From positions 1 through 64,000 of the forward strand of contig JAKSYS010000037.1 of the NCBI GenBank assembly GCA_022925895.1: DNA of 64,000 bases, read 5' to 3'. The notes beneath the pieces were generated by a model. It was not told where the DNA came from. It saw only the letters and a list, made by a program, of their open reading frames with translations, and did not search any database. Of this stretch, positions 7,827-62,098 are shown piece after piece (the stretch's first letter is position 1; each line of letters starts with the position of its first letter). Origin of the DNA: Fragilaria crotonensis (Eukaryota > Bacillariophyta > Fragilariophyceae > Fragilariales > Fragilariaceae). The position numbers and the translations under genes were made by a program.

Positions 7827-8012
7827 ACGGATGTACCTATAATTCATGAAACAAATAAAGCAACCATGTAGGTCATAGTATATTCCCCAAGTAGAAAAAA
7901 CTCCGTGCTGTCGCCGTGCTAAAATGGAGGATTCCGGCGTACGACAGTACGTATAAATGGTAAGAAATAGTTTCGTATCGTACTAGTACAGTAGAAAACA
8001 TACTACGGCGAG

Positions 8013-10043: not shown

Positions 10044-10051
10044 GATAAGAA

Positions 10052-31020: not shown

Positions 31021-32074
31021 CCCTTGCGCGCCGGCCGACCGATGAATCAACAGATACGCGCCTGCCTATCTCTTCGCGCGCCAGCCTACATGGTAATGAT
31101 TCCTATTTTCAATAACCGTTTTCCATCGATTGATTTCAAATACTGTACGTGTTTGGATACGTCTATAACGTTCTTTGTCAGCGTGTCTGTTGTATCTTCC
31201 ATCCAAAATCCAAATGATGCATTTTTTCGAGCTCTTTTCTAGTTCTAATATTTCGGTCATTTGATTGCATTGCTCCATAATTATGTCCTCCACGTCCTCG
31301 ACCACCCGGTTTTCCGGATGTCCCAGTACGAGGGTACAAGTACATGTACCTGGCCAGTGTACCTGGTACTACAGATACGGCCAGTGGCCAGGCTATTCTG
31401 TGAACCTACGTACAGGTAGTAGAGATGCGGCCTGTGGCCAGGCTATTCTGTGAACCTAATTTGTAGAGATAGTAGACGATAGTATACCATTTTGAGCGGT
31501 TTTTGAGGCGTTCTTCTACCATTTCGGGTAGGTAGATCTCGACTACCCGATTTGTACCTTGTATGCATACCAGGTACCTGTAAATCCTATAGGCAGGAAG
31601 TTGAAAAGTATACCACTCGTGACACCTGATGATATACTTTTCGATTACTACATACCTGGAGTGCAAGTTGACTGTTTTTCGGAGTACGTCGTAGGGAGTT
31701 TATACGTACGATGGCGAGTACAGGTACCTGGTACATCAGGGGGGCCAAATCTCTGGAGTCTGAATAATTATTTTTGACATTTTACAAATAAATATTTGAA
31801 TATCTTTCACCTTTATCGTTGGCTATTACTTAGAAAATTTCTAGATATTTATGTACAAAAAGTGAAATTACTGCAGAAGTATCTTGAAAGTTTTACACAT
31901 AATTCTGTACAAAGGCTTTCTCCCCCACCATTTGGCTTGACATTCCAAACTTTCCCGCAAATATTTCTAGTGTGACATTCCAAACTTTCCCGCAAATATT
32001 TCTAGTCTTAAGCTGGCACAGTACTGTACTACTACTGTGTGTTGTTGCCAGCACACTAACAAGCACCATTGTTA

Positions 32075-33742
32075 TCAAACTGATACTCCTCGAACTCCAT
32101 CGCCAGGTTGCTGCTCTCCATTCATCCCTGCACCTCCAGTGATGTTTGCGCGTGCTAATAACAATTCCATATTGAAATCATTGTAGACAATTGTTGGCTG
32201 AACAGTCGCCACAGGAATTACCTCAGCTTCTTCTCCAGATTGTCCACTTGCAGCGTCAATTCCAGAAGCATACCTGAACTTCATTTCTCCAAGAAGTCAG
32301 CGTCAAATGTTGCTCCATGTTCTTGACGGTTGCGAAACACGTCAATCATTAATGCGTTGAAACGCTCTAACCCTTCCTTCGACCAACTTTTCGTTCCGTA
32401 AGTTTTTCCAGTGTATCTTGCCTCATATAATTGTGGAGAACTATCGCGAGGTGGCATTGTGGCTGGAGGTCCCATTCTCTGTACCATCCAATCATGCACT
32501 TTGTCATGTACGATTCGATGCACACCATCAGGAAGGCCTCGTCCGTCAGTGTGAACCACTGACTCAGAGGCTGCCTTGTGCGATTCTCCATGTACTTGCT
32601 GTACCTGACGACAGCCTTGACAAGGCAGTCAAGGAAGTCAATGTATCTTTCTTTAGATGCTGGACTCCTCATTCCAGCAATCTGATTAAGTTCAAACGTG
32701 ACAGCATATCCATCTCGCCCCAGTATTTTATCTGTGAAATAGCAGTTGTCAGTACAGAAAGTCAATCACAGTTACCACCATCCTGAGCAATATGCACGCT
32801 CACCTCTAAAAAGTTGTTTGATGGTTTTGATGACATTATTTCTATGCCTTTTCAATGCATCATTAACATGTTTCTTGACTCCATCCCACCAAGTCTTCAC
32901 TTCATCCTCGCCTTCTATCTGGAGCTTGCTCGCCATGAACCTACAAATTGAGTGTGGACTGTTGCTGAAGTCAAGTTCAGCCAGAGTTGCAAACTTTGCT
33001 TCGGAAATAAGAGCTCTTTGACCACCTTGTCGCATGAACTCTTGGCTTACTTTTCTAAGCTTAGTTCTTGTCAGTCCATCATGATCACCCATTTCCAATC
33101 TTCTCCTTACCGTTTTCGTCAATGCAGTGCGGCTGCTATCCTCCCGTCGTGACGCTTCTTGCACCAATTCGCATGTGTGAATTCCTAAATCGCGTGCAAT
33201 ATCGTCTTGCCTTCCTATTGTTGTTGCTGCTGGTGGTGTTTGTTGTTGAACTTGCTGTCGCTGTTGTTGTTCTTGAAATCGTTCTTGAAGTCGTTGTAGA
33301 TATCGTTGCTCTTGTTGTCGTCGCCTTGTTGTCGCTCCTGTTGTGATCTACCAGACATTCCTCCAACTCCACTTCCTGGATTCGTGAAACCAGCATGTCG
33401 ACCAGCTGTTGCAGCTTGACTGCGGGTCATGATCATGGGTGACAATGCTGCAGTTTGACTTCGGGTCATGATCATGTGACAATGTTGCTGCATCTGTTGA
33501 CTGCGGGTTCTGCTGGGCGACAACGTTGCAGCTTGACTCCGTCGTATCATTTGCGAATTGCCAGAAGGCGATGGTGATCCTTTCCTTGCCAGTTTGAAGA
33601 TTGCCCCTAACTGTAACTGGCGCTGCGTTTGGAGGCCCAGCACCTTTCCATGTCCATGATCACGACTGCCACCACCTTGATTGCTGGTGGCCTCTTTTTC
33701 CCGCGCTCGACGACATCTTGGTTGACTGCAGGTACACACCAA
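32075..33742 (-). CDS. Gene Y' of element B, conserved transposon companion of unknown function
   Basis: A protein spread over several frames, with introns and/or frame breaks (a GTGAGC-like donor near 32,803 supports at least one intron). The N-terminal part (33,742-33,230) is low-complexity, with repeated MTRSQ-A-ALSP units and a Gln run. The middle has KHVNDALKRHRNNVIKTIKQ. The C-terminal half has LTDEAFLMVCIES, then YTGKTYGTKSWSKEGLERFN and ALMIDVFRNRQEHGATFD. The SDEAF-like and EGxxxFNALxIxVxxNR motifs are shared with gene Y of element A. I know no function; a DNA-binding or regulatory companion of the transposase is a guess. The start is uncertain, as no ATG is clearly indicated. Confidence 0.6.
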
Positions 33743-34796: not shown

Positions 34797-34945
34797 GGTG
34801 AACAACGACCAACTGCGACGACATCGTCAGATTGCGAGCGTTAGTGACACCGATCAACTGCGACGACAGCGTCAGATTGCTGCGAGCGTTAGTGACAACG
34901 ACCAACTGCGACGAGGACAGTGTCAGATTGCAAGCGTTCGTGTGT
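34797..34945. repeat. 51-54 bp tandem repeat, three units
   Basis: Units contain CAACTGCGACGA, GTCAGATTGC and GAGCGTTAGTGAC. It lies in the spacer between genes Y' and X' of element B. Confidence 0.7.
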
Positions 34946-35089
34946 TGCAGAAGCTGTCATATAGCAGACGACGCACTGTCAGCGTCTGCCTGCATTGCTT
35001 GAGTTCGGAATATCTGTCAAACGACTGTGACGACGGCGTTGAGTGCATCGTGTTCGGAATATCTTCCGACGAACGACTGGCACAACAAC

Positions 35090-35680
35090 TGCGACAACAG
35101 CGTTGGATTGCGAGCGTCTTGTTGGGAGTCTTGTTGCCAAAACTGCCATATAGCAGACAACGCAACTTGACGTCATCTTGCGAGCGCTATCTACGTTGTT
35201 GGGAGGACTCGGAGCGTCCTGTCGCCGAAGCTGCCATATAGCAGCCGACACGGCTTACGTCACCTTGCCTGCCCTGCAATCCCTGCGTCTTGTTGCCGAA
35301 ACTGCCATATAGCAGACGACGCAACTTGACGTCATCTTGCGAGCGCAATCTACGTTGTTGGGAGGACTTGGAGCGTCCTGTCGCCGAAGCTGCCATATAG
35401 CAGCCGACACGGCTTGACGTCACCTTGCCTGCCCTGCAATCCCTGCGTCTTGTTGCCGAAACTGCCATATAGCAGCCGACGCGACTTGACGTCATCTTGC
35501 GAGCCGCAATCGACATTGTTGGGAGGACTTGGAGCGTCCTGTCGCCGAAGCTGCCATATAGCAGCCGACACGGCTTACGTCATCTTTCCTGCCCTGCAAG
35601 TGCTGTCAACTTTGTTGGAAGCGTCTTGTTGCCGAAACTGTCATATAGCAGACGACGCAGCTTGACGTCGCCTTCGCTCA
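35090..35680. repeat. About 160-bp tandem repeat, 3.5 units, with half-unit substructure
   Basis: GTCGCCGAAGCTGCCATATA recurs at about 35,221, 35,380 and 35,541. In each unit a second, related GTTGCCGAAACTGYCATATA lies about 75-80 bp further on. TTGACGTCATCTTGCGAGC separates them. It ends just before the start of gene X'. It may be a promoter-linked or transposase-binding minisatellite. Confidence 0.75.
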
Positions 35681-37926
35681 ACTTCCATGATTCGCAATGA
35701 TGACAACGACCATTTGGCTACACGTGGTCGGACATCGATCTGTCGTTCGAGCGTTCTGAATCTTGGGGACAACCCGCGTGTAAACCCTGGAAAAGCTGCA
35801 GGTGGTGCACAACGAATGCCACGTTCGCGTGGCCGTAGGAACTACTACCCTGGCCATCCAAAGGTTCTGTCGCTTCTGTTGAAGTGTGTTCCCCTTGGTT
35901 TTCTGGGGAGTGTTTGTCGTGGCTTCAAGGCTGCGATGGATTCACGTCCAAAGATGCCTGATGATCTATGTATTTGTGGGACTCCACTGCGGTGGATTCA
36001 GGATTCTTTAAGAGAAAAACAGTATCATGTCACACAACTTCGTTCCCTTGATGAACTCTACTGTAGACCTGGTGTACATGACCATGTTTCGGAATTCTTC
36101 TTGCTAGATGTTATTCTTCATCGCGCGCGACCACAACTGGGAGAGGGTGTGGCTCCTCTGGCCGAACGAGATCCTGACGCTGTCGCTAATGCGTGCGTCT
36201 ACACTGACAGCGATGACGAGGATGGAAGGATTACGAGTACTGTGCGGTGCTTGCTTTCCTTCCCGGTGCTGGCACCTTGTATAGCCACCGTGAGCGACGC
36301 AAGGCTGAGACGGGTTTGCAGAATTCGTTTGTACAGCTGGACATGAGCTGGCTTCGACTCTCTCGGGCAACAAGTGAATCATCAGATACTGGAATGGACC
36401 GATTGGCCTTCGGTCTGGGTGGATACGTGAGAAAACTTGCCTCCGATGCCTCTGCAGATGGTGGATTTGTATCCGCTTGGAAAATATCCCGGAGTTATCA
36501 TCACGAAAAATTGAGTCGCCAGGTGTATTGGGCAAGTCAGTGCTCCGATGCTGACGGTCCTCGAATGCCACCTGATGTCATCGGTGGCATTGATATTGGT
36601 GCGTGGCATCCGGCTGATCGTGGGCAAGCTTTCAATGACCGCTTGGCGAGGTCAAACTCTGTCAGAATTGGGGGGAGACACTATGCTCCTGGCTGCCATC
36701 ACTTCCGCCTGCCCAGCGATTGTCTTGTGATTGATGGGGCTGATAATGCTGTGGTTGACATTGTTGTGGATATTGCACCAATTGGCAATTGCACATCTCG
36801 GAAGTCGATCATCATGGTTCGCCAGATCTTATCGCCAACTCTGGATCCATTGTGTAAGGGTGAAGCAGGGCGACCACTCATGGTTGAGGACTTGCGTTTC
36901 ATCACGTTACACAACTCTTTGTTGAGGACGCGTGTTCCTGTCGGCTCGGCTAGGGCCAGTCGCGGTGATCTTGGAAACATGCATCCGATTGGGACTCGCA
37001 TCCTTCTTGACGGAGTGACAACGGCAGAGTACGCTGCAAACTCGAAAGTTCCCCAGCGAATGTTGCGGAAGTTTGTTGAGTCGTTGGCTAAGATTGGTGC
37101 GAACTGCTTTCCGGAAGTTCTTGCCGTGATGCAAGATGCTGAAGGCGACACCGGTCTCCACCCTGTAACACCAATGGCTGACAAGGGAAGTGAAGATCGT
37201 GTGGCGTATTCCATTGACATGTCCGTGGACCTTGGAAACGCCTCCCACTTCGATGTGGGTGACTCCTCACAGGGCTTCTCGGTTTGGACTGAAGAAGCCC
37301 CTGGCAAGGCGGCGAACTGGTTTTTTGTGATGCCAAATCTATTCGGGAACAATAACGGTGCGCCATTCAATGGCGTTGCTGTCAAGCTATACATCAGAAG
37401 GTGGGTTTTTGTATCACTGACAATATATGTTAACTATTTGTTAAGAAATAGTAATATGTTGCTTGAAGTCACGTATATGTTATCACTATTTGTATGTATT
37501 TAGTCATTCTATACTGCGACATTTCTCAGAGTCATATGCTGTGGCAAAATATATTTATATAAAACCAATGTGTGTTACCTAGTAGCATCTATGCGTATAA
37601 CTTACCTTAACAGTTGCAAATGTAACAATGTTTCTCTAAACATTTTTACTTTATACTGAATACATGTGGTAAGAGTATCGCATGTGGATCATTAAATTGT
37701 TTGTTCTGAACAGACTCTAGATATTCATACGCCATATACATTTAAGCCATGTTTTTACGACCATCCATTGTTTGGTATTGGTTTGCGAAATTTTCAATCT
37801 TTTGGTTTTGGGGGAGACGAGCATTTTATGAACCAACCATTTCTTGTCTCCTTCCAAATATACGCTTACGCGGGAACAAAATTGTGATATTTTGTCTTAA
37901 CTCCACACACACTCTCATCCAACAAG

Positions 37927-40900
37927 ATGGTAACACCTGATCATTGTACGGTTTGCAACAAGAGTTTCAAGAGACTTTTGCACCACCTTAATCAGAGTTT
38001 ATGTAAATCTCATTACATGGCAAGTGACAAAGCAGCAACAACAGTGCCCTCCATTGTATCAAACATCGGCCACGTGAAAACCGGTAATTTGTTGCAAGGT
38101 GGTACTTCTCGCACTTTCCGTCCAAATTTGAGTTCTCCTTGTCCGATGGATTGCTTCCAGTATTGGAGAGTGGGGAATTGCTGGAAAGGCCGACGATGAG
38201 CTGCGTGTTGAAGATGTCAACGAAGTCGATGACTACATTATGTTTGACGACGACGGTATTCCCGAGCAAGGCGATGCTGACGATCAAGACATTTCAGAAA
38301 CTGAATCGGAGGAAGGTCCTGATCTCAGCGTTTTGGATTTGTACTTAAAACTGTTCAAGCTGCGAGCAAACCTGCTCGGTCTTGCGCGTTTTTCTCGGGA
38401 GGAAAGAGTCCAAATTGAGTTGTTGCAGCTTCTTAGGGATCTGAAGTGTCCTCTCAAAGCATTCACCCTAGTACTTAAGTGGGCTGCTAAATCAAACGGG
38501 AGCGGCCATTCATTCCGTGAGGGATTTCAACCAACTCGTGAGAAGGTGATCGCAAATTTATTTGAAAGGTACAACATGAAAGGATTAATCCCGAAAGAGA
38601 AGAAATTGTACCTGCCTTATACACAGAGGACCGTCTCGTTGATATTCTTTGACGCCAGTGAAGTATTCGCATCGCTACTCTCATGTCCCACGCTCAATCA
38701 AGATGGGAATTATTTCTTCGACAAAGCAAAGGATCCATTTGTTGCACCAGAAACATCATCCCACGTGGGTGACATCCATACAGGCCGTTGCTACAGAAAG
38801 ACATACGACGCCCTGATTAAGAAGCCTGATGTCGACATGCTCCTCCCCTGTATCATGGCAATGGACAAGACATACATCGACATGGCAGGCAGACTCCAGA
38901 TGGAGCCAATAACAATCTCTCATGGTCTTCTGAACCACTCAATACGTCGGCTCCCAATTGCCATGCGAATCCTCGGATACATCAATCACAGCACCCCCGC
39001 CCATCTCCCTTCAGATTCCGAAATAGATGCCGAGTTCAATGCACCCGCTGACTTGCCAAAGGGGACCGCCCGTGTTGAAGACCCGCTTCGGTGCCCCAAA
39101 GACGTAAGTTGGTCAACGTTAATCCTGAACGAGACACACATGCAGATCCAGTTCATCCTAGAGGAATCTGGTTTTTTGAGATTACAGAATCATGGTTTCC
39201 GATGGGATCTTAGCTACAATGGAAAGATCCACCCCGTCGTGTTCCACCCGTATGTACCCTTCATCATCGGTGACACAGAGGGGCACGACCGTCTTTGTGG
39301 TCACTACACCGCCCGATTTTCACAGATACAACAGCTTTGTCGCATCTGCGAATGTCCCACATACTTGAGTGGTTATTCCAAGTCCAACTTTCGCCACCGT
39401 GTTCCCAAAAAAATCGACGCTCTTGTGAGTAAGGGCCACACCGTTGAGCTCCAGTTGCTGTCCCAGAACTATCTTAAGAATGGATTCGCTGAGGTTAGGT
39501 TTGGTCTCCACAATCAGCGCGGAATATTTGAGCCTGCCCAGGCGAAATGCTCCATTTGATTTCCTCGGTTGGTTTAAATATTGCCTGCAGGCCTTCTCAG
39601 CCCAAGCTGGTCCCAATTCAAACGCATTGAAACAATACGATGTGCTGTGCGCTAAGTTGGGCAGATCATTGTCCAGACAGAGCGATCGCGACATCCCCGA
39701 ACGAACTTCCCAAGGGGTTTTCATCAGGATCCAATCTGATGGGGCACGAGATGACAGGGTGTCTTTTAGTCACATTATTTGCACTGCACACCACCTACTT
39801 CCGAGGCATCTTCGAGGTTGGGAAAAAGGTAGCTGTAGTAGGGGATGACCAGAGGTTTCGTTATGAAAACCACATTCAAGATTGATAGGAGTTGTTACAT
39901 CTCTCCTGGTGTGGCACCAATGGATGAAACAACCGATGATGTCAAAGAAGATGGTCAAGCGTTCGCACACCTGCTTGCAGTGGCTGATGCGTGTTGTCGC
40001 CGAAGTGGCGCCCCGTCCAGGAGCAATGGGAAACAATACGATCAAGACGCACTTGGTACTGCATCTGTGCGAAGACATCCTTGACCACGGTGTTCCCGAC
40101 AACGTGAACAGCGCCTACGCTGAGTCAGCTCACATCCCACTCGCGAAGGCGACATCCCGAAACACACAGAAGCGAGCCATATCCTTCACAAAACAAGCAG
40201 CCAATCGCTATACTGAAAATTTAGTCATTTCACTCGCTTCTACAGACGTAGAGAATGACGTCAAACGCAACGTCGACAGCAGTGCAGCTGACGTTGACAC
40301 CCCGCTTTCCGATGGTAAGGGTGGTCGTCGTTTTTACCTTGCATGGGAGGAAGGCAATGAACGCGCCACGTTTCGCTGGACTCGCCCGCGCTCCGGAGAC
40401 AACTTGGGAGATGGCCCATCTTTCGCACCGAGTAACGGCCTTTCTGAGTCGACATTGCCTGCCCAAAATGCCAAAGGGGAGAGCTCCCATGCTTCACGTC
40501 CTTCAACGACGAGGACGGCAACAATTACCGCGCCCATCCTTGCTACGACGGCAAGGCATGGAACGATTACGCGATGATCGAGTGGGAAGGGTACCCACAA
40601 CCCGAACCGGTGTTCATCCACACGTTCGTTGACCTCCGCGGGCTTCCGAAAGGAGACTCCATTGACATCAACTCGAATGGACAGACAAAATTGACAGCCG
40701 GGTTGTACGCCGTCGCCCACTCCTTCAATCCAGTTGACGAAGGTGACCTCAACACACCGAACACCCTCATAGGTCATTATACCCACATTTCCATTCCTTT
40801 AACGACAGACATCCAACCCTCTTCCTGGTGGATGTTGAGTCCATAAGGTCACCGGTACTAGGTATTCCGGATGTTCAATTTGGAGTAAAACCTCCAATGA

Positions 40901-41305
40901 ACGAGCGGCATTACCTGTTCCTGATCCGTCGCAAAGCAGAGTGGCCCCGTGCGTGGGATTCCTCATAAACAGGTGTCACCATGACTTGGAGCACGACGTG
41001 GATGACGACACCTGGTTTGAGGAGGAGTATGAGAAAGACGAATTGATCAACCGCCTGCCAAGTGGTAGGGAAATTTACAGTGTCAAGACCCCAGAAGACT
41101 TTGCCGCGGAGGTAGCCGCGGAAAAGCCGAAAAGGTTGCCGCCAAGAAGAAGGAGCACGCCGCCGCAGAGAAAGCATCCGCGAAGGCAGCGAAGGCCGCC
41201 GAAAACCCAGGCAAGAATTCGAGTGCCCCAGCGTCCACCGCACAACGGTTGGCGGGGAACTTTAAACGCAAACGAGTGGCCCCAGCAAAGACGGGTAAGG
41301 GGTAG
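37927..41305 (+). CDS. Plavaka-like transposase of element A
   Basis: A transposase spread over several frames (37,927-38,199; about 38,225-39,559; about 39,555-40,577; about 40,574-40,850; to 41,305), through introns or decay. The N-terminus has a zinc finger, HCTVCNKSFKRLLHHLNQSL. The core shows the first catalytic Asp in CIMAMDKTYID, a second in FIIGDTEGHDRLCGHY followed by a Cys-pair region (CRICECPT), and a late Glu in AYAESAHIPL. The C-terminal part has HTFVDLRGLP and HYLFLIRRKAEW and ends in a Lys/Ala-rich tail. This arrangement matches Plavaka transposases, a branch of the CACTA superfamily, which excise and insert by a cut-and-paste DDE mechanism. The stop at 41,305 lies about 60 bp from the end of gene X, tail to tail. 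Confidence 0.82.
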
Positions 41306-41368
41306 CCAGTAGGCAGTCCCCAAGTGTTGTCAGCTAGGAAGCTCACGCGGTAGTAGTAGAACCAGTAA

Positions 41369-44119
41369 TCAAAGTTGAACATGTTTATTTTTTTTCTTCG
41401 GTATCTTGTATCGTCCACCAACCTCCAGGTCAGTGATTTGCACCCGCCAGCCACCGAAAGTCAAGCTGTCACCGGCCGGTTGTCCATCTACCTTCCGTCC
41501 ACCCACGCAGGGTGTTCCGGCACTCACCGCCACGTTTGGTTTTCGAGAACCAGAATGCAGCTCACCACCACCGCCACCAACGGCTCCGTCTTCCCGGCCG
41601 TCCGCAGGGGACGGCGAATCACCAACATCACGTTCCCGTTTGCCAGAATGGAATCGCCGCACGGCATCGGAGCCTTCCGAACACAGTGGCAGCCCAATGG
41701 CAAGGAGCTCGACAGCCGCCTCAGCAGACGCCAACTCGCCAGCTTGCCAACCAGGCTTCGTGGCCGCGGCACCCCCGGTTTCAACCCGAGGGCTGCCCCT
41801 CCGGCGGGGTCTCCTCCTCCTCTTGTTCTGTCGCTTCCTGCCAGCTCTCTTCGAGCCAGCCGGAGAGGTGGCCCCGGGGGGACAGTAACCGGCAGCACAC
41901 AAGGCCCGTCCAGCCTTCACAATCTTCTCCTTTGCAGCCGTGAACGTTCCGTAAAGATGGTTCCGGAAGGAAGAGTCCCTCCCCCGGGTCACAAACCCAA
42001 ATTCCTTCCCATCCGGACAGGAAACAGACGAGCAGTGTCGGATGACCCTGCCATCCCAGCTGATGGCCACACCATGGCCAAGCTTCACCGCCATGCCCCG
42101 GAACTTGGTTCTTCCATCCGGTCTAACGCCGTACGTTGGGAAGAACAAAGTACCAGTTCTCCCACAGCCCGGCACTTCCTCCGTCCACAAACTGAAACCT
42201 TGCGAGGCGTCGTTCACGTCAAAGTGCGACGAATTCCCGAGGTTGATGCTCATGTCCAGTGTACCCAACCCGTTGGCGACGTTCCAACATCTCCATTCTC
42301 TCCCGAAGATTCTCGCGTACGTTACCGCAATCGTCGTTGACGACGCCAAAGTCAACGTCACCGTCACCCTCGTCATCATCGTTGTTGTTGTCTTTGTCGT
42401 TGTCACAATCGACGATGTGACCATCACCACCAAGGCCGTCCACCATCGGAAGGACGACGCCGTCCATCGGCGAAAGCGGACTCAAACCAGAGTTCCCCTC
42501 GGTGTCCCTTACGACAGAGTACACCTGCGGGAAGCAACGACCCCCAAGGATCGCCAAGTCAACGATGAGACCCCGGAGGACGCCGTCTACAACACATGCA
42601 TTCGCTGCGTACGGAATTTTGCTGTAAACAGGGGGGCCAGTGGGTGACTCCATCGTTTCAATCCTTGTTCCAAGCGCGAACATTGAACCAACATCAGCCG
42701 ACTTAGCCCTTGCAGTGCCCTTTGCCCCGACACCCGGATCTCCTGACACCGAGACGTCAGCCGCTCCAGCAACTCAAGGTGGTCATCGTGCGCGTCAATC
42801 TTCGTGACATTCCGGACCAGGACAACGGACTCACGATCCGAATGCCGACCACGCCAACGTGAATGTCAACGAAGTGGGTCTCGTCCGATCGATGACCCAG
42901 CAGGAGTCAGGTATATCATAGTGGTGGCTGCCATCAACGTAGTGCCGGCAATCAAACTTTGCGCTACTAGATGTCTTAAGTTGGTTCCGGAATTCATATG
43001 CCCGATAGTCGGGGGACGTTCCGCAGGTCAACGCCAGCAATGAAATCCGGTGGCAACATGGGTAATTCGGCGTCGTGGCACTGAACAGCCCTGTACACCA
43101 CCCGGTTCTGCAGGGAACAGTGCCTGTATCCCGTAGAGATTCTCCAGGCCGACACGCGGCGGTTCTCGCTGAGATAGCGAAACTGTGCGAGATGACTTGA
43201 CCGTAAGGCTCAGGGTTCCCACGGGATTCTGAATAGAACCGCCTCACAAAGCTGTCACTGCCAAAGGTATACGAAGGAAAGTCGTCGCTTGTACCCTCCG
43301 CCCTCCGCAAGCGGAGCCAGCTCATGTCATACGCCCTAACGCCCGGCACTCCAGCATCCCCAACGTGACGGTCCCGATGACAGTAGAACACTCCACACTG
43401 AGGCAGGAACAAAACCGCTGCCCTGTAGAAATAATCCATCTCAGGGCCAACATCTTCTGGTTTTCGGGACAGGACGTGACGAACTTCATCAAAATTGACG
43501 TCAGAAGACCGGCCACCGCCACGCTCCCCCCGCCTTCCCACAACCGTTCGACAATGTGGCCGGCGAAGGAGCCCGGTTGAGGATCACGTCCATCACGTAG
43601 AACTCGTTGAGGAACTCCGACTGGAGTCCAGACTCCGGGAACATGTCGGCAGCCGAACGCAATCTAAACGGCTTGCATCCAAAAGCTTCTGCAACGACAC
43701 TGATCGGAGTCTGACACAAGAATTCACTGCACCCAACCCCGCTCGCCGTCCTGAACCTTTGCCGGAATGCACTCCTCTCCTCCGGAACAACGGCCATGGA
43801 CAACAACGACATCATGCGTAGGTGAGTCGGGCGAGTCTGCCTCTCATCGCGGTGAGTGGGGAGGGACTTCCCCCCGTCCGCCACATCACCGACTCCTGGA
43901 ACACGTGGCGAGTTCCCAAGGTTTCTAACAGATGTCACGCTCGGGGGAAGTCTTATTCCCGGTCTCCGCGACCTTCTTCTTTGTGATCTTCTTCTTTGTA
44001 ACCTTCTTCTTCGCAACCTTCCTCTTCCCAGCCTTCTTCGTCCCAACCTTCCGTTCCCCATCCCTCCCCTCCACGACCACATTTTTCACAGCATCAACGC
44101 CACGTCGATCGGGCGACAT
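41369..44119 (-). CDS. Gene X of element A (2OG-Fe(II) dioxygenase-like), several frame changes
   Basis: It reads from 44,119 (MSPDRRGVDAV) through a Lys-rich N-terminus (KKKVTKKKITKKKV, possible nuclear signal), then NLGNSPRVPG, a segment ending NEFYVMDVILNRA, DMSWLRLRRAEG, YSKIPYAANACVV, and LGNSSHFDVNDASQGFSLWT, MAVKLGHGVAISWDG and RVIRHC. These line up with gene X' in order. HFD (His codon about 42,226) and RHC (His codon about 42,037) are spaced as in X'. A basic RKRQNKRRRRPRRRG stretch follows the putative catalytic region. At least three frame changes occur; some may be introns. In fungi, TET/JBP dioxygenases that oxidise methylated bases ride on KDZ transposons; by analogy X might modify nucleic acid bases or protect the element. 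That role is inference. Confidence 0.68.
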
Positions 44120-45253
44120 CGGGCTCTCTCCTGCTTCCTGGCAGGTGAAGGCCGCGCAATGCCAGTTCCAACCTCACAACAACCAGCCACAGAGGATGGT
44201 TGTCGCGAGCGCTCTCCAACAAAGACAATCAACACGCAATCCTGGCGTGGACTGTCTATTTGTTGAAAAGTCAGCGAGAACTATCCGACGGCGACGTGGT
44301 GATGTTGCAACAAACAGCAACCCAACAAGAGTACTTCATCAAAGTACTCTATCATCAAGTTGTGCTTTTTTGGTGTCACCATTCACCAAAGGTACTAACA
44401 AGCAGCAAAATCGATGTACTGTAAGTACTATGGCGAATGTAGGGCATTTTGCACCTGGGACTTCTTTCCAAGACCTCTAAATGCAGCATAAATATGTTAT
44501 TCATGTATATAACATTGAATTACGATATATACGCATTCATCGATTTTATTAAAATTATGTATGTAGTTAAATGAAAAAGTAATTACAGTACATAGCATTT
44601 TCATGTATAGATGATACATTCGTTTCCCAGGACAGGACTACATACTGGTACAGGTACACTATACTGCACCAGTATGTAGCAACAAATCAGTACGAACACA
44701 AAATTTAATGCTTGCTTAATACATGGATGTACATATATATGCAATTTACATCATGTATGCATACGCACCACGACACGCTCGAATGATTACCAAGAACTAG
44801 CTGCCGGTATGACACAGGTGTTGCATACTCCGAGTACAACAACTACTGGTAGTGAAACAAGATTGCAAGTCCGTCCACGCAAAAACAAGACTGCAGCGAT
44901 CATCATGTCATATATAATTTTCTAGTCACACATATTCATACAAGTATATGAAACGGAAAATGTCAGAAGCTAAATAGTGAACATGTAAGTGCATTCAAAA
45001 ACAATAAACGACTTGCACATGTTTTGTGAATATAAGTCGTAACTAATACAATTTTTGTCGAAGTCATGTACAGGTAGAAAATGAACAATTAGGGACAACT
45101 CATACAATTTTGAAAACTGGTGGGAGATTCAAAATCCCAAATTCATCACCCAAAATTACAAGTCGTCTCATACTTGCTGCAAATTGATACAACCACTGAG
45201 ACCGCTATTCTAACCCTTGCTTGCTTCTTCTTACATTTTGATTCATTCCTCAT
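44120..45253. other. AT-rich spacer inside element A
   Basis: No gene. It lies between the heads of genes X and Y, the same place as the minisatellite-bearing spacer of element B, and probably holds both promoters. Confidence 0.45.
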
Positions 45254-46987: not shown

Positions 46988-47281
46988 TTGCTTGTGATTG
47001 CGACAGATGCTGCTGGCAGCCATAGTTCATTAAATGCATTAAAATGGTGAATGTTATGAAAACAAATGGCTAGGTTGATACAATGTATGCTGAAATGAGA
47101 ACACCGCAATGCGTGAAGAACAAATATATATGGTGACTTGTCCAAATATATGTCCAAGATATAGCATGATATCGCCATATGTGATTTTCTATAAGTATTT
47201 CATTTAAACAAATATGTTGACACACGATTTGATATGTAACAATATGTGTCACATTGTGAATATAATATTGCATCTATATTG
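46988..47281. other. Subterminal right part of element A, left of the Copia insertion
   Basis: AT-rich, with repeated ATATGT/ACATAT words like those at the left end of A. The remainder of this region continues at 53,726-53,867 after the Copia element. Confidence 0.55.
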
Positions 47282-47469
47282 TGTTAATATCACATGTGGC
47301 GTACTTGTATATGGGCATCGGTACGACAATATGATTATTGGACAGTAGCACGAACGACAGTATAAACTACGGAGGTCAGGAAAGGTGCACACATTCCAGT
47401 GATCGGTCGGTTTAACTATAGATATCTTTGACATGCTTATCAATATTTGATCATCACGTGGAATTAACA
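47282..47469 (+). repeat. Left LTR of the Copia element
   Basis: 188 bp, starts TGTTAATATC and ends GAATTAACA; nearly identical to the right LTR. Confidence 0.95.
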
Positions 47470-50400
47470 GTTTATCAGACCCAACAGCTCAATGGATAAA
47501 GATGGCGCTATCTGGTCGTTTGTGATTGAAGAACTACGACCGATTGGTCCATCATGGTCAATATGATGGATCCGATTTTGAGCAGGATTGTTGAGATTTG
47601 ATTCAGACGAGTAAAGTAACTCGAAGGACTCGATTGCCTATCATATGCCCCACTAATTTTTGGGCATCATATAAGGCATATATCGAATACACCAATAACA
47701 GCCAATAAGAAACCGGCTTGAGGTGACTCTTCTTCTAAGAATGGCAAGTCACATGATCTCCACGTCCGTTGTCACATATAAATCGACATTTATAAGATTC
47801 GCTTCTCTCTCACTATACCTTGTTTGTTTGCACACTTCTTCGACTTTTGAGCTTTTGCGCTATCTGACCACTAACCACAATGGAGAATGCCCTCGAACTC
47901 TGTGGCTTCAATGCCCAAACCATCCGATACCTTATAAGCCAAGGATTTAACTCACCAGACGACTTGTTGCTTGCAACAGAGTCAGAGTTGAACTCGATGG
48001 CGACTTCGGTCGCAAGGAATCCACCTAGGAACATGGCCCAAATCAACATGCCATTCATGGCGTTAAAGAATTTGAAGGGACTTCGTTTCTGGGCAGATGA
48101 AAGGAAGCGCACCGGTCTTGATGCAGACGCTGATGACTTCACAGGTGAAGACGTCGCGATCTCCACGGCAAAATGTCAGGAGTACAATGAGCTTAAAGAC
48201 GCCGCCAAGGATGAGGATGCATCGAAGCCGGACGCTTTGAAAAAGCTTACCGGGTGGGCTCTCTGGAACGAATCGTTCCAGAACTACCTCCGTCAGATCG
48301 TGGGTGCCGCAAAGATCCCTCTTATCTACTTGGCTAGAAATGAGAGAGATAATCCAGATGAACCCCTGATTCCCGCAAACTTCGGTACACCAACCGAATA
48401 CCTTATTGAGGCGACTATTTTCCGGGGGAGGCATTACGACATCGATAACCCCCGATTCTATCGCGAGTTAAAGTCGTTTACTGTTAACGGTGAGGGATGG
48501 TCGTACATTAAGAAATTCGAGAGGTCTCAAGATGGGAGGAGGGCGTACTTGGCTTTAAAGACACAGTGCGAGGGAACGGCATCAAAGATTACGCGCAAGA
48601 ACAAAGCGTATGCGTCAATCTCCAACGCCGTTTACTCGGGTTCACGTCGCCAATACAAATTCCAGGACTTCATCAATACCCATCAGACAGCTCACAACGA
48701 GATTCTTGATTGCGATCCCTCAGAGGCCGTCCCGGAATCTAAAAAGGTTGCAGATTTCTTAAAGGGTATTACCGATCCAAAATTGGAATCGGCCGTTTCG
48801 GTTGTGCTGGGTGATGTGAAGCTGTTGAATGACTTTCAGCTCTGTCAGCAGTACTTATCCACGACAGTCGAAAATCGAGCTACCCTTGAGAAGAGTAAGG
48901 AGCGGAACATCTCTGGATTGAAGAGCGGCGGAGAAAATCCGATCAGAAGGGAAAAGGAGGAAACTTCCAAAGAACTTTAAGTTGGAGAACAAGTGGTATC
49001 CCCGAAGATCTATCGCCTCCTCACCCAAGAGCAGCAAGATCAGCTCAGAACATGGAATAAGGATAAGGACGGCAAGAAATCGAAGGGGAAGAAGAGGTCA
49101 GTGGCAGCCCTTAAGAAGCAGATTAAAGATGTGCTAAAGGAGGTGGATAAGAAAAGGAGAAGGACGAGAGTGACGAGGACGAAGACGATTCGAGCGCTGA
49201 CGACGCTGCCGGAAAAGAATTCCGCCGCGGTGCGCACAATAAGAAGAAGGCGAAGAAGGACAGTGCCTGACATGAACACACTGTCGCGATGGTATCAAGG
49301 GCTGTGTATGCCGTAGACTATGACGCGATCACTAAAGGCGACCATCGCGCGGGAAGGTGTGAAATGGATTCTCACGCCGACACATGCGTCGCTGGAGGCA
49401 ACTGCGTCGTCTTGGAATACTCGGGGCGAAACGCGACGGTTGAAGCGTACTCGCCTGATTACCCATCAAAGACGGTACCAATCGCAACAGTGGCAACGGC
49501 ATATGACTGTCCAACTTCTAACGCCACATTTGTTCTGATTATCAATGAGGCACTTTTCTTCGGTGAATCACTAAGCTTCTCCCTCCTCTCCGAACCAATT
49601 ACGAGACAATGATGTGCATGTCGACGAACGACATAGACAGTATGCCCCCGACTCGATCTTCGGTCTTCATGTACCCTCTGAGCCCTTGACCATTCCTTTT
49701 GACCTCGAAGGCGTTATTGCTGGTTTTACCACGCGACTGCCGACACAAGCCGAACTCGACGATGTCGCACTCCATGTCGAACTGACGTCTGACGTCGAAT
49801 GGATTCCTAGTAACTTCGCGCTCTCGCTCGTGGAGGAGGATTCCAAGACGGACGATTCTACAATTTCAACTTTACGAGCTCGGCGCTTAAAAGTCCTCAG
49901 ATCCAAGTCCGATAAACATAGAATCAAAAGTTGCATAAGAACCCTCGAAGCTACACAATCTTTGTTTGAGATCGAGACCGCGAACGAAGTCGGAACGCTC
50001 GACAACGACCCTATACTGAGACGTGTCGCCGCACTGACAACGTACGAAGCGGATACAAAGGTGTATGCAATTCGAACCGGTGATGTGACTTCGGAAGTGA
50101 CACCCGAGAATGTCGCCAAGCGATGGTTGGTTGGGATCGAGACAGCGAAGAAAACCCAATGACGACACAAAAGGTTCGATCCATACCAAACCCAGCAACG
50201 CGGCGATTCAAAACGCAAATGGCGCACCTACGCTATCCGCGAATGGGTGGGATGTTTTATGCGACATAATGGAGCCCAAGGTGCTTTCTCTGAGTCCCAA
50301 AGGTACGCCCACGTGATTGAAACGGCCGTGGATTCGCGAAGGTATACCCGATGGAGAGGAAGAACGAATCAATTTATGCGCTCGACGATTTCGTTAAAAG

Positions 50401-53400
50401 GTTGGAATTCTGAGACATTGCTTTGCGACAACGACACGACAATGGAGGGGTGGCGGGAATGGAAGAAACGGATCCGGAAATACTCAATCGATCCGAAGTA
50501 TATGAACCCATTCGCCATTCCAGAACAAGGCTGAGTTGGACATAAGGGAATTAAAAGGATGGTACGGAGGTTACAGGATAAAATGAAATCGCCGAGGCGG
50601 CTTTGGAACTATTTGGTGAACTTATGCGCGAGGATCCGATCCTTTGTTGCTGGTTCACATCCGGACCTGAATGGCAGGAGCGCCTTGAACAGGTACACGG
50701 TTGACGCCAGACATCTCTCTGTACATCATGCACGGCTGGTATGAAGTCGTGGCTTTTCTTGATAGCGACAACGAGAGGAATTGGCATGCTGGCTTGGGCC
50801 AGCAGAAGACTATGGCGGAGGGACGCCGTGTTCCTCCTTCCAAAATCTGCCAAACCTATCGTGAGAAGTACAGTTTGGTCCCTGACCCGGAAGAGAAGGC
50901 CGACATGCGAGAGGATATCGAGGAGTTGCTGAAGTCGATTGACGAAAAGATCGGAAACGATCGGACTAACGACGAGGTGTTTGCGGAGCTAGGTAATGAT
51001 GTGCCCCACAAGTTGAGATACTCGGGATGGAATGACGCTGACGAACATGAGGCTGCAAAGCTTCGGGCCGACGCTGATGAATACACACCCGAGGCTTTCG
51101 ATAAATACTTGAGCGCTCAGATCGTCACCGATAGGGAGGTGAAATGCTTCGTGGCACCGTCAAAAGTCGGAAACGTGATAGCGACGGCAAGCCAATTGGA
51201 TCTCGAATCCGAATCCCATCCTTGACACGAGAGAATACATCGTTTGTTTTGAGGACGGACTGAAGACACTTATATGGCGAACCTAATCGCCGAGTGCATT
51301 TATTCTCAGATTGATGAGAATGGTCGACAACTCCTGTTGATGCAGGAAATTATCGATCACAAGAAGACATCGGATGCATATCCGAGGAAGATTCTTATTA
51401 TTCGACGAAGGCGGGCCCAAAACCAAAGCGTACAACTCGCGGATGGCGCCTGTTAGTCGAATGGAAAGACGGCACAAGTACCTGGGTATCCCTTGCTGAC
51501 ATAAAGGACTCATACCCGGTACAAGTGGCGGACTACGCGGTAGCGAACAAGCTGACGCAGGAACCTGCATTCCGATGGTGGGTGCCCTTCGTTTTAAAGA
51601 AACGGGAAAGGCTTCTGAAGAAGGTGAAAACCAAATACTGGTCGGTAACTCACAAATATGGACTCGAGCTTCCAAAGAGTGTAGCCCAAGCATTAGCGAT
51701 TGACAAGAGAACGGGGACAGACTTCTGGGAAAAGGCGATTGAGAAGGAGATACGAAACGTCTTTCCTGCTTTCGAATTCCTCAAGACTGACGACGGTACC
51801 ACCTGGATTCCAATTCGTCGAAACATATTTTGTCTTCGATATCAAGATGGACTTGACCAGGAAGGCAAGGTTGGTCGCGAGGCAGCATGACGGAAGCAAC
51901 GAAAGAGGAAACATTCGCATCAGTTGTCAGTAGAGATACTGTCAGACTATTCTTTCTCTTGGCAGCGCTTAATGACTTGGACGTCCTTTCATGTGACATT
52001 CAGAACGCCTATTTAGCTGCGCCTAACAAAGAGAAGGTGTGGACAAAGTTCACAGATCAGCTTGGCCCCGAATATAATGGAAAAAAGGCTATCATTGCGA
52101 AGGCGTTGTATGGTTTGCGTTCGAGCGGACGTTCGTTCCGTGATTATCTTGCAATGAACTTGCGAGAGCTTGGGTTCATTTCGTCAAAAGCCGACCCCGA
52201 TCTCTGGATGAGGAGCGCGAAAAAGTCGAACGGAGACCACATTTATGAATACGTGATCTCGTATGTGGACGATCTTGTGTTCCAAGGAATCGACCCGAAC
52301 GTCTTCATGGACGCGCTCGGGAAACGCTTTACGCTGAAACCCGGAAGCATAAAGGAGCCGGACACCTATCTTGGGGCAAACGTGAAGAAGTTTCGCATCC
52401 GAATAGCGATGACCCAGACAAGGTAAGGTGGGCATTTGAATCTTCGTCGTACGTGGCGAAGGCGATCAAAGATGTCGAGCGCGAGCTCTCAGAGGCCGAC
52501 ATGAGGCTTATGCCAAACGTAAGGACGCCACTAGCAAGTGGTTATCGGCCGGATCTTGACCTTTCCCTGAATTAGGAGCAAGCAGTTGAACTATTTCCAA
52601 GGGTTAATCGGGATATTGCGGTGGATCTGTGAGCTCGGAGGATTGATATCCTAATGCCTGTTTCAATATTGTCTCGGTACCTCGTATCCGCACGACAAGG
52701 GCATCTCGAGCAGGCCTTCCATATCTTCGCATACCTGAAGACACACTCGCGTTCAACGATGGTTTTTGATGATACGGTGCCGACTTATAAGAGTAAACGA
52801 TTCGTCAAGTGCGACTGGTCCGAGTTTTACCCAGATGCCGCCGAAGCCATACCAACCAACATGCCTCAACCGAGAGGGAAGAGGTATGTATGACCTGCTT
52901 TGTTGATGCGGATCATGCTGGATGCAGGAAACACGTCGGTCACATTCAGGAATCATTATCTTTGTCAATCGTGCGCCGATTTTATGGTTTTCCAAGAGGC
53001 AGAACACTGTTGAAGCCTCAACTTATGGATCGGAACTACTGGCGATGCGGATTGCAATCGAAATGATCGAAGGGTTGAGATATAAGCTGCGAATGATGGG
53101 CGTGCCTATCCCTGACGAGTGTGCAGTCTTCTGTGACAACTCAGCGGTGGTTACGAATTCACGGCCGGAGTCGACCCTGAAGAAAAAGCACGCCGCAATC
53201 AACTTTCATAGAGTCCGTGAAGCAATAGCTGCAGGAACCATCAAGATTGCTAAGGAGGATACGCGTTCAAACCTCGCGGATATCCTGACGAAGTTGATGC
53301 CTGGTCCTAAAATGAAGGAGTTATTAGCGAACCTCCTATGGTAATCGCAGCATGGGGACGTGACCCCGGGGACGTTGCTACGGGGACGCGGATAGATACT

Positions 53401-53537
53401 GTCCAAACAGTAGATCACTGCCAGGTTAATGGTTAAGGCTAGAAGTGGTCGGGGCCTCTGTCACAAGGATTTATAACGCCGGTTAATATGGGATGTTACG
53501 CCTCCGAATAACGTGGTTATATCGAAGTCGCGGGGAC

Positions 53538-53725
53538 TGTTAATATCACATGTGGCGTATTGGTATATGGGCATCGGTACGACAATATGATTATTGGACA
53601 GTAGCACGAACGACAGTATAAACTACGGAGGTCAGGAAAGGTGCACACATTCCAGTGATCGGTCGGTTTAACTATAGATATCTTTGACATGCTTATCAAT
53701 ATTTGATCATCACGTGGAATTAACA
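53538..53725 (+). repeat. Right LTR of the Copia element
   Basis: 188 bp; two differences from the left LTR, both within the first 30 bases. Confidence 0.95.
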
Positions 53726-54559
53726 ATTGTGAAAAGATACAATATATGTTTGAGACAACATATGTGTTAGCCACTTAACATACATGTGCAGAACTTGCGA
53801 TAGGGATGTCATTATCCGGTAACAATTCAAAGCATAAAAAATAGTTAACATATCCCACCTTCTGATGTACCATGGAACAGCCATCAGTTGGGATGGCCGA
53901 GTCATACGTCACTGTACGTCACTGACTTGTCCTGACGGAACTGGCAAGCCATATGGGGGTGGCGACCATCCCACACTGAACCATGTGTATGGTACATTCT
54001 CCGCCGCTAAAGAGCGGATTGTAAATGCAGGACGATGCAGGGCAGCTGCGGCTGCGGCTGCTGGATGTCCTGTCACAGCATCCGTGACGAAATCATTGCA
54101 CCGCACGTATGCGTGATGTTGTTGGAGCCGCTGGAGTTAACGGTGATGACAACAGCAATGATGACGATGACCTTGTTCCTTGGTGGATAGTGCTTCCACC
54201 TACGTCCCCAAAATTGAGGATGCGGACTGACGGGCATCCACCGCCCAAAGATGGCTCGAGGAACACTGGTTGTGTTTTTACGCGCAGAAGAAGGGTTGGG
54301 ATAAGGTACACCAACCTGATGAAGCGGTGACTGCTGATGACGACTCATCCCTATTCTCTCGTGATATTGATGATGAATATTCTGACCCGTGGCGATGGAT
54401 AACTCGATGGAGAGGGACATGTCAGTCCGATGAAGACCTTCATCCTCAGATGTTGTCGGGAGACCGCTCACAAGGGACACCAACTGAATCTATAACGGCA
54501 GCCATGCTGATGCAGGGCAACTACACGGTACCAAGAAGGAAGAGGTTGAGGTACTAATT

Positions 54560-57454
54560 GATACGTACTATAGTTGAAGAATGCGGATCACCACACAGAT
54601 TTGTAAAACAGAGATGCCCACTCTCCTTATCCTTCACGACAAAAACTGTGTCCGTAAGCTCGCAACCATCGACAAGTACATAACACAAAGAAACAAGTGC
54701 AGTGCTGGAAACAACGTAGAATTTTCGGTCAAAGGTCCACTCAGTGAACAATATGGACTCAAGCACCAGTGGGCTGATTGCAAGATTGGACCACGAGGTC
54801 GAATGACTTATCCTCCTGGGATGTCCACGTCGGTGAATACAACTGACAATACGACATGGGAAGTCATCCAAGTTTCTTGATCGTCTTCAAACCGAATCAA
54901 TGCCCAATCATACCAGGGATATCCATCACCTCAAAATTTGGATGGGCTCGAATGGAAATGCACTTCTCTTCTGAATCAACTTCGTACTTTGTGTATTCAG
55001 TGCTACACTCTATCGTACCCTCCCATTCTCATCCAAGTCAGTTTCACTGCACGATTGCACTATGAAAAGTGCAAGATTTGGTTCGAGGTGGATGGGTTCC
55101 TTGTTTCCGTTATGAAAACAACTTCACGAACCAAACGATTGTTCTGATTGGGATCACGGAAGCATCGGATGTGATAGCGAGTGCCACGACCTACTTCTTT
55201 CGTTGCTAGTGGACGTGATGTGTTGAGGGAGCGTTTTCACGGAATTCTTCTGCAAACACGGCATGCATTGTGTCTATGACTAATGTGTCGGCATTCTCCG
55301 GCGCACTGCTGGTCTATCGTCCGAATGCACTTTGTGAACGACGAGCAGGGCGCTTTGCATGGGCCTTGTGATGTTCCTCGGGTCGTGAGGCATTGTAACC
55401 ACGAGGTGCTCCAAACGTAGAAATGAAACGGACAATGTGTTTCAATTCGTGAATTTTGACACCTTCCAGCCATTACCAGCATCTCGTGGAGGTACTTCAG
55501 AATAAGAGACATGAGCCGTGTAATTGCATTTTCTGCCAAGGCTGCCTCCCAACTTTATCTCCTCCTATAGCGTCCCAATAGGTATCAGCATCCAGCCATG
55601 CCTCGAAGCACAGAAGGCATTCCATTGTACCCAGGACTGCCGGAAGATCGGGGATGTACCTTGAGATGGCATGCCATACCTCAGCCTGCATAGTCAGTGC
55701 AGCGAAAAGGAACAAAGTACCTGATTGTTCCGAGCACTCAATAAGTGTTGGTGATGCCGCGTGCGAAATCAGTTCGAGGAAAATCTTGACGAATAGTTTG
55801 AGGCATGTGACATCAAATTTAAGTGCCATGTCATCAAGGATTGCCAAGATCTCGGCGCCAAGAAAAGTCTTGAATGACTCAAGTACATACATGATGACAC
55901 CATGCTGTACAGTATGCATGACATCGATGACAGCACACATGAAGATGCCATGAGGATTACGTCCCATCTGGACACGGTTGAAGGCATTGTCAACCCTGTA
56001 CATCGAGAGCTGCTGAAGAAAATCGTCTGTCCCATTGCGACATGCATCATTGACATAATCCATGCGAAGAAAAGAACACTCAACATTTGGATTGTCAAGA
56101 TTGTCAAAAACACAATCACAGGACCGATGGTGACGCGGTGTACTTCTGTGGTGACTGTTTGTACGGCAGCAAAGTTGATCGCCTTGCTTACCATCATTAA
56201 TCACAAAAAGCAGTGGACAAACAATATCAACAACCACCCACTGACCGCCAAGTTTCAAAGGAACATTCTTCAAACGACCATCATTTCCAGCTTGTGCCTT
56301 TGACATGCCATTCAAAATTACGTCCATCACTGCATGAAAATTACGTGGTGCGTCCTTTGACTGTGCGTTATTAGCTTGAGAGTTCATTGCGGATGATCGT
56401 CCGCGATTCAAGTCGGGAACATAGCCTAGTACTCGCCAGGATGTGCTCTTTCTCCTGAGCTTCTCAGTGAAGAGAGATGTCGAAGGACACAGGACACACT
56501 TCAACATGCCCCTTGTTGTCAATGGCAGTCCCATCAATATAGAGGATGATAGGGACAAGTAGCTGATTCTTTCGAGTGATAAGTTCATGATAGAGCTCAC
56601 GGTAGCGGCTTCCAGTTTGTGCCTCACCAATTTTGTTGTTGCTTGGGAGGTACATTGATGTGGGATCCTCGTGGTTAAGCACAAGATTTTCTGGTGCCAT
56701 CAAGTCTTCATCCAGCAACGACAAAAGGATGGGAGCAAAGTCAAAGCAAGCAATCCCTTGAGGTTTGTCACGATCTTCAAGGGCAATGGAGATCACCTGG
56801 GGAGATGGTGGTGTGAATGTTGCAAAGCCTGATACATCCATCGGATGTTCGCCTGGACATAGCTTTTGGCTTGAAGTCAAAGCCGCTAGACTTTGCATTG
56901 TAAGCCCACATTAAAACTTTGTGCAGCATGTAGTCAGGACACTGGGCATCCTCCAGAATCTTCAAAGTTCAACAATGCATCGATGTTCAACATCATGTTG
57001 CAAAATCATCACTGCATGCCTCTCATTTGCACGAATGCGTTCCATCAAAGCATGGACAACTGCAGGAGATGCAGTATTGTCAATTCCAGGAAAGAGTGTC
57101 GTTGTTATTGGAAGTTGATCTAACTGCTGGGCGTTAAAACACATTTCATTCTTGTCATTTTCATTGTCATCATCATGCCGTCGTCATAGCCAGTTGTTCC
57201 ATAGTCAAATTCTTCGAATGGCATGTGCGTGGGAGGATTTGTGTCCATTCCTGGATTCAGGCGGGTTGATTCTACACCATAACAGGGACGTCGCACTGTC
57301 GAAACATTTCGGGGCAACCATCCACGCTTGCCCGAGTTCCTGACTGCTGCCTTTCCATGTAATCCTTACAGGATGAACTCCGCCAAAGGTGCATACGCAG
57401 TCCGCGTTCAGATTTAAACCTAGCATAGCAATTGATGTTAAAGCAATCAAACAT
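54560..57454 (-). CDS. Plavaka-like transposase of element B, frame changes
   Basis: It reads right to left from MFDCFNINCYARFKSERGLR (57,454; zinc-finger-like, with HLWRSSSCKDY), through SGFATFTPPSPQVISIALED, ENLVLNHEDPTSMYLPSNNK, and the catalytic-Asp region LLVPIILYIDGTAIDNKG, then FTEKLRRKSTSWRVLGYVPD, KLGGQWVVVDIVCPLLFVIN and NVECSFL, a long middle part (GIFMCAVIDVMHTVQHGVIM), a TIDQQCA segment (about 55,300) and a C-terminal YDWALIRFEDD near 54,900. The YIDGTAID and SWRVLGYVPD motifs are typical of Plavaka transposases. It differs strongly from the transposase of element A, so the two are separate lineages. Frame changes occur near 56,480 and 55,540 and in the C-terminal third. The left end is approximate. 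Confidence 0.75.
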
Positions 57455-57891
57455 GACAATTGTCAACAATGCCTGATGGTGCAACTTTGAGGTCTATTTT
57501 CTGAATTCACAACATAAGATGCATACTGCAACAAATTTTGGCGCGAGACATAGGCAACATAATCCTGAGTCTGGCGCGTGAAGAAAATTGCGCGGGCATC
57601 CTTGGAACTTGAGCATGAGTGAACATTGGCCCGGTGGTGACCCATTACAGAGAATTCAAGATAAATTACCATTGAATAATGCACAAAGAGTTATTATTGT
57701 AAAACAATATCTACAACAAAGCTACAAATATCTGAAAATCATACATTGCCAATAAATAGGAGAAATGTGTTTTGTTGTTCATATATATTTACAAAAAAGC
57801 AAACATTTCTCAGAAATAAGTAGAAATTGATGGAATATGTGATTAAAACCCACCGGGTGAAGTACAAACCAGAGATTTGGCCTCCCTGATG

Positions 57892-61905: not shown

Positions 61906-62098
61906 ACAAATCGCAACTTCGTCGGGTGCCTGGGACATGCGGAAATCCTTCTTGCTGGGGTTAAGGATCACCGTTTTTCACCGTTAGTTTTTGTTTTAAT
62001 TATTTATACAAAACGATTACTTATATTTAAGATTGCCGTAAAAGGTCGGACTTGCGCGTGTGAGCTTGGCTTGCGTTTTTCCAAAACCTTCTTAGCAA

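What the first reader, a model, noticed from the sequence alone, without database searches (positions are those of the whole stretch)
31734..57891. Two members of one undescribed three-gene transposon family, one inserted in the other
Seen: elements A and B both begin CATCAG, both have TA on each side, and both carry transposase, X and Y in the same relative order and orientation. A lies exactly inside gene X' of B, and the coding sequence reads through K-L-Y-H-G-T when A and one TA are left out. Together they define the ends, size (about 10 kb without insertions) and gene content of a family. Known: the transposases fit the Plavaka branch of CACTA elements. Inferred: the trio is the functional unit, because it is kept in two lineages with quite different transposases.
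Basis: partly seen in the sequence, partly recalled or inferred. Interest (0 to 1): 0.93.

Follow-up and report, generated by a model that had tools for sequence, protein, structure and literature searches.

The report
Nested Plavaka transposons with shared genes
Two distantly related cut-and-paste transposons, one sitting inside the other, carry the same three genes in the same arrangement; one of the extra genes may encode an enzyme that helps the transposon escape DNA silencing, but that is not shown.

Summary
The anatomy in the finding is real. B (31734-57891) and A (37392-53867) both run CATCAG...CTGATG, have inverted ends (22 of 23 and 14 of 14 bases) and are flanked by TA. A lies in B's gene X'. 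Leaving out A and one TA restores a frame that aligns, across the joint, with A's own uninterrupted X, so A's ends and 2-bp duplication are secure. A copia element sits inside A. Net lengths are 9.7 and 10.0 kb. Both carry transposase, X and Y in the same order. X is 42% identical (249/588), the transposases 29% (105/365); Y is only weakly similar (33/98).

A's transposase is Plavaka (Pfam E 3.6e-8); B's is linked only through A's. The ends are those published in 2025 for fungal PlavakaB elements, some of which carry a TET/JBP dioxygenase gene (PMC12730594). So these are two families of a known clade, not one new family.

X has an invariant HxD...H pattern in its best-conserved stretch, suggesting a TET/JBP-like oxygenase. 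Pfam, PDB, profile comparison and AlphaFold gave no support, so this stays a hypothesis (about 0.4). No relatives were found, but no eukaryote collection could be searched.

The parts
31734..57891 (.). Element B, PlavakaB-like transposon, 26158 bp with insertions, 9680 bp without A and one TA
   Evidence: CATCAG...CTGATG, inverted ends 22 of 23 bases, TA on both sides
37392..53867 (.). Element A, PlavakaB-like transposon inserted in gene X' of B
   Evidence: CATCAG...CTGATG, inverted ends 14 of 14 bases, TA at 37390-37391 and 53868-53869; frame restored without it
32284..33742 (-). Gene Y' of B (approximate limits, frame breaks)
   Evidence: weak match to Y of A, 33/98 residues around 32633-32320, above shuffles and random stretches
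35747..37391 (+). Gene X' of B, part before the insertion of A
   Evidence: aligned to X of A, 249/588 residues for the whole gene
53870..54083 (+). Gene X' of B, part after A; holds the WDGRxIRHC motif at 53889-53915
55500..56968 (-). Transposase gene of B (aligned part, approximate limits)
   Evidence: 105/365 residues identical to A's transposase, score 169 against shuffle maximum 64 of 60; no Pfam match on its own at E up to 10
37921..41312 (+). Transposase gene of A, several frames (approximate limits)
   Evidence: Pfam Plavaka PF18759 E 3.6e-8, 33.4 bits, cut-off 26.3; frames
41869..43935 (-). Gene X of A (aligned part)
   Evidence: 249/588 residues identical to X'; HxD at about 42226, WDGRxIRHC at 42032-42058
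45694..46987 (+). Gene Y of A (approximate limits, several frames)
47282..53725 (+). copia-type LTR retrotransposon inside A, LTR pair at 47282-47469 and 53538-53725, ATTG on each side
   Evidence: LTR stretch 188 of 191 identical; RVT_2 E 2.3e-14 at 51857-52423
34937..35674 (+). Array of eight 54-nt repeats upstream of X' with CTGCCATATAGCAG

Best explanation
Two cut-and-paste DNA transposons of the PlavakaB branch of the CACTA-like (CMCT) clade, A inserted in B at a TA. Shown: the ends, the TA duplication at A, the nesting, and a transposase/X/Y trio in one order in both. Inferred: the transposase cuts at the CATCAG ends and inserts at TA; Y, weakly conserved with a shared WSxxGxxxFNAL motif, is a DNA-binding helper; X is an accessory protein kept by selection, most likely (about 0.4, more than any other single function I can name) an Fe(II) oxygenase of the TET/JBP kind that oxidises modified bases on the element and counters silencing, as proposed for TET-carrying transposons of fungi.
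For: Ends, TA and restored frame. A's transposase matches Pfam Plavaka above its cut-off. CATCA..TGATG with 2-3 bp duplications defines PlavakaB, and all TET-carrying Plavaka reported there are PlavakaB (PMC12730594). X is conserved more than the transposase (249/588 against 105/365), most strongly at its C-terminal end (30-residue blocks 13% to 73%, best window 80%), where an invariant HxD is followed after 62 residues by an invariant His and 12 residues later by an invariant Lys. CMD1 has His345, Asp347, His397 and Arg410 (PMC7854593 passages). The motif set appears in 44 of 2000 column shuffles, with limits chosen after seeing X.
Against: For X as TET/JBP: no Pfam match for X while 3 of 3 phage TETs tested match PF12851 (E 3.4e-6 to 5.2e-6, though below Pfam's own cut-off); no PDB relative (one chance hit, E 1.8); profile comparison with 11 phage TETs no better than shuffles (29 of 150 reach it, reversed X scores higher, HxD not in register); HxD segments of X rank 2 and 3 of 56 for TET2 but 41 and 48 for one phage TET and 14 and 26 for another; AlphaFold confidence 29.6 and 31.3; the arginine expected after the second His is a lysine. 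For PlavakaB: B's transposase has no Pfam match; no tree was made.
Confidence: 0.65

Rival explanations
1. X is not an oxygenase but another transposition helper (a second DNA-binding or assembly protein), and the HxD...H pattern is coincidence.
For: No library, PDB or profile method links X to oxygenases; motif in 44 of 2000 shuffles although limits were chosen after the fact.
Against: The pattern sits in the most conserved stretch of X, and fungal PE-type TETs were also barely visible to profile search (HHpred e-value 1.4 with CMD1).
Confidence: 0.45
2. X (and perhaps Y) moves sideways between transposon lineages, so the shared trio reflects exchange or parallel capture rather than one functional unit of common descent.
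For: X is better conserved than the transposase; exchange of TET/JBP genes between transposon superfamilies is reported in fungi (PMC12730594).
Against: Same order and orientation of three genes in both elements, and no DNA-level similarity around X.
Confidence: 0.2
3. B is not one element: its outer CATCAG/TA borders are a chance pairing and A was inserted into a host or other gene.
For: No empty site of B was available; B's transposase does not match Pfam alone.
Against: Inverted ends of 22 of 23 bases with TA on both sides, and the same trio in the same arrangement inside.
Confidence: 0.04

Closest known systems
PlavakaB DNA transposons of Agaricomycetes, TET-carrying in Agaricus bisporus and Gymnopus confluens (Kojima 2025, PMC12730594)
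   Same: Ends CATCA..TGATG, 2-3 bp duplications, Plavaka transposase (A by Pfam); an extra gene beside the transposase
   Different: X is not recognisable as TET/JBP by sequence and has HxD where the fungal PE type has HxE; a further gene Y in both elements; host is not shown to be a fungus
ESTA and PHISTA elements of rust fungi (PMC12730594)
   Same: TA duplications and an accessory TET/JBP gene; PHISTA has a third gene of no known domain
   Different: Other transposases; here A matches Plavaka in Pfam
Plavaka elements outside fungi: green alga Auxenochlorella (PMC12636532) and giant repeats flanked by a Plavaka transposase in Amoebidium (PMC11244446)
   Same: Plavaka transposase outside fungi (passages only)
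   Different: The passages seen mention no X- or Y-like gene
TET/JBP oxygenases (TET2, NgTET1, CMD1, phage gp2)
   Same: HxD...H spacing (62 in X'; 52 in CMD1, 50 in phage Nigel gp2)
   Different: No sequence or profile similarity found; lysine at +12 in place of the arginine

Membership tests
Plavaka transposons | Plavaka transposase domain (PF18759) | tested here: met
   A: E 3.6e-8, 33.4 bits over a cut-off of 26.3. B: not met on its own (no match at E up to 10), placed by alignment to A
PlavakaB | Ends CATCA..TGATG | tested here: met
   both elements; definition
PlavakaB | Target duplication of 2 or 3 bp | tested here: met
   A: TA, supported by the restored frame; B: TA on both sides, no empty site
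PlavakaB | Position in the CMCT transposase tree | not tested
   no reference transposases were at hand
CMCT clade | Acidic triad with C(2)C and H(3-4)H motifs | tested here: inconclusive
   by eye: CRIC in A but no second His; MHTVQH in B but no clear C(2)C; frame breaks in both
Canonical EnSpm/CACTA | Ends CAC..GTG with 3-bp duplication | tested here: not met
   CATCAG and TA; definition
TET/JBP dioxygenases | Detectable Tet_JBP domain (PF12851) | tested here: not met
   no match for X or X'; 3 of 3 phage TETs match, below the curated cut-off
TET/JBP dioxygenases | Iron-binding HxD/E...H triad in a double-stranded beta-helix | tested here: inconclusive
   motif present and invariant between two sequences; fold not predicted
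PE-type TET of fungal transposons | HxE instead of HxD | tested here: not met
   HFD in both copies; hallmark

The most novel reading that the evidence does not exclude
X is a highly divergent, transposon-borne TET/JBP-like DNA oxygenase of HxD type carried by PlavakaB elements in a non-fungal host, so that the link between PlavakaB transposons and erasers of DNA marks is either very old or arose twice. The lysine in place of the usual arginine would hint at an unusual co-substrate site.
Probability: 0.35. Interest if true: 0.8.

Novelty: new variant of a known kind. Interest (0 to 1): 0.55.

Why it matters
The nested insertion gives clean borders for a transposon group described mostly from fungi, and the comparison of two far-diverged elements shows that an uncharacterised protein (X) is kept more strictly than the transposase itself. 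If X erases or alters DNA marks, transposon-carried anti-silencing enzymes would reach beyond fungi, and that can be tested with a deep alignment and a simple enzyme assay.

Tried and rejected
Relatives: seven scans of viral contigs (X alignment, X core, both transposases as an alignment and singly, two motif patterns) and two of genome contigs gave no relative. Nine prokaryotic stretches with the short X motif showed only chance tblastn matches (best E 0.031 over 11 residues, run against 21 loci). Y was not scanned for. These collections hold viruses and prokaryotes, so this says nothing about rarity in eukaryotes.

Function of X: Pfam, NCBIfam, PHROGs, PDB, hhalign against 11 phage TETs, HxD segment ranking and two AlphaFold jobs gave nothing usable; the weak matches listed (E 0.15 to 1.8) point to unrelated families. 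No fold search was run because the models were too poor.

Rejected: canonical CACTA (wrong ends), one single family (too divergent). Subterminal motif counts were too small to interpret.

Papers: PMC12730594: abstract, parts 1-5 of 7 of the text, figure legends and passages; PMC7854593, PMC12636532, PMC11244446, PMC8226300: passages only. All others were seen as search listings. Two papers by Iyer and others (2014, 2013) are not held. Listings 16, 42, 45, 46, 90 and 108 (the last showing 10 of 2,049) showed no title or abstract on X- or TET-carrying Plavaka in algae, and 41, 81 and 94 returned no papers; this covers one open-access library and its shown rows only.

Full report
Anatomy. B spans 31734-57891 and A spans 37392-53867. 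The stronger proof is that A's own X gene, which has no insertion there, aligns straight across the joint (MAVKLGHGVAISWDGRVIRH in A, VAVKLYHGTAISWDGRVIRH in B). This fixes A's borders and a 2-bp duplication without another genome. B's outer borders have no such check. A in turn holds a copia-type LTR retrotransposon (47282-53725; LTR stretch 188 of 191 identical, ATTG on each side, reverse transcriptase domain E 2.3e-14). Without insertions B is 9680 bp and A about 10.0 kb.

Genes. A frameshift-tolerant alignment gave X 249 of 588 identical residues, transposase 105 of 365, Y 33 of 98. Scores against codon shuffles of the B partner: X 779 against a maximum of 60 in 40; transposase 169 against 64 in 60; Y 66 against 59 in 100. 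Y also beat 80 random window stretches against each partner (maxima 49 and 58). In A the order is transposase (+), X (-), Y (+); B has the same set inverted. The genes carry frame breaks in this sequence; whether that is decay or assembly error cannot be told here. A and B share almost no nucleotide similarity (one 35-bp match, in a blastn whose ends for A were set 1 and 8 bases too far out), so they are two families of one clade rather than one family.

Which clade. A's transposase matches Pfam Plavaka above its cut-off. B's matches no Pfam model at E up to 10 and is placed by its alignment to A's. Kojima (PMC12730594, parts read) describes PlavakaB in fungi with ends CATCA..TGATG and duplications of 2 or 3 bp, and reports that all TET-carrying Plavaka found there belong to PlavakaB. 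Both elements here fit the ends and the duplication. No tree was made. Plavaka transposases are also mentioned outside fungi, in a green alga and an ichthyosporean (passages).

What X may be. X is conserved more strictly than the transposase, and identity peaks at its C-terminal end: blocks of 30 residues run from 13% to 73%, the best window being 80%. That stretch holds an invariant HxD and, 62 residues on, an invariant His, followed by an invariant Lys at +12. CMD1, an algal TET relative, has His345, Asp347 and His397, with Arg410 thirteen residues on (passages of PMC7854593); phage Nigel gp2 has 50 residues between the two His. This suggested a TET/JBP-like oxygenase. The tests did not confirm it: no Pfam match for X while 3 of 3 phage TETs tested match PF12851, below its curated cut-off; no PDB relative (one chance hit in 98); profile comparison with 11 phage TETs reached or beaten by 29 of 150 shuffles and by the reversed X, against a positive control of 83.7; an ungapped HxD comparison in which X ranked 2 and 3 of 56 for TET2, but 41 and 48 for one phage TET and 14 and 26 for another; AlphaFold confidence 29.6 and 31.3. 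The motif combination turns up in 44 of 2000 column shuffles, with limits chosen after seeing the sequence. Kojima reports that the fungal PE-type TETs were likewise barely visible to profile search (HHpred e-value 1.4 with CMD1) and were recognised through predicted structures, so a negative sequence test is not decisive. I put X as such an oxygenase at about 0.4, and the full novel reading at 0.35.

Mechanism. Most likely the transposase cuts the element at its CATCAG ends and inserts it at TA (inferred from the clade and the borders), Y binds element DNA as a helper (inferred; only a shared WSxxGxxxFNAL motif and position speak for it), and X relieves silencing or has another accessory role (inferred). 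Keeping all three in the same order over a divergence that erased DNA similarity argues that the trio works together; sideways exchange of X, as reported for TET genes in fungi, is the main alternative and would fit X being the best-conserved gene.

Limits. No whole genome is held for the window and no eukaryote collection was available, so the diatom origin, copy number, empty sites of B and the spread of X and Y are untested. Host-type genes in the window (desaturase with cytochrome b5, trypsins, GCR1_C proteins) fit an alga but do not prove one.

Noticed in passing
34937-35674: Eight 54-nt direct repeats upstream of X'; the near-palindrome CTGCCATATAGCAG occurs six times exactly there and in none of the ten other stretches counted, and a related inverted copy lies at 33752-33771, upstream of Y'. 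Possible binding sites for an element protein.
   Followed up: partly
47282-53725: copia-type retrotransposon with 188-bp LTRs inside A; its coding region is split over several frames.
   Followed up: partly
5348-10200: Tandem duplicate of a gene with a GCR1_C domain (E 2.5e-7 and 6.5e-7), one copy a single 727-residue frame, the other split.
   Followed up: no
27907-28563 and 60869-61960: Two related trypsin-like genes on the minus strand lie on either side of element B (E 4.6e-14 and 1.7e-30).
   Followed up: no
12551-13891: Fatty acid desaturase with a cytochrome b5 domain, split into two open stretches.
   Followed up: no
59325-59520: Three perfect copies of a 65-bp tandem repeat.
   Followed up: no
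L012:223-1005: A Prochlorococcus phage protein annotated only as hypothetical matches Tet_JBP (E 3.4e-6, below Pfam's cut-off).
   Followed up: no
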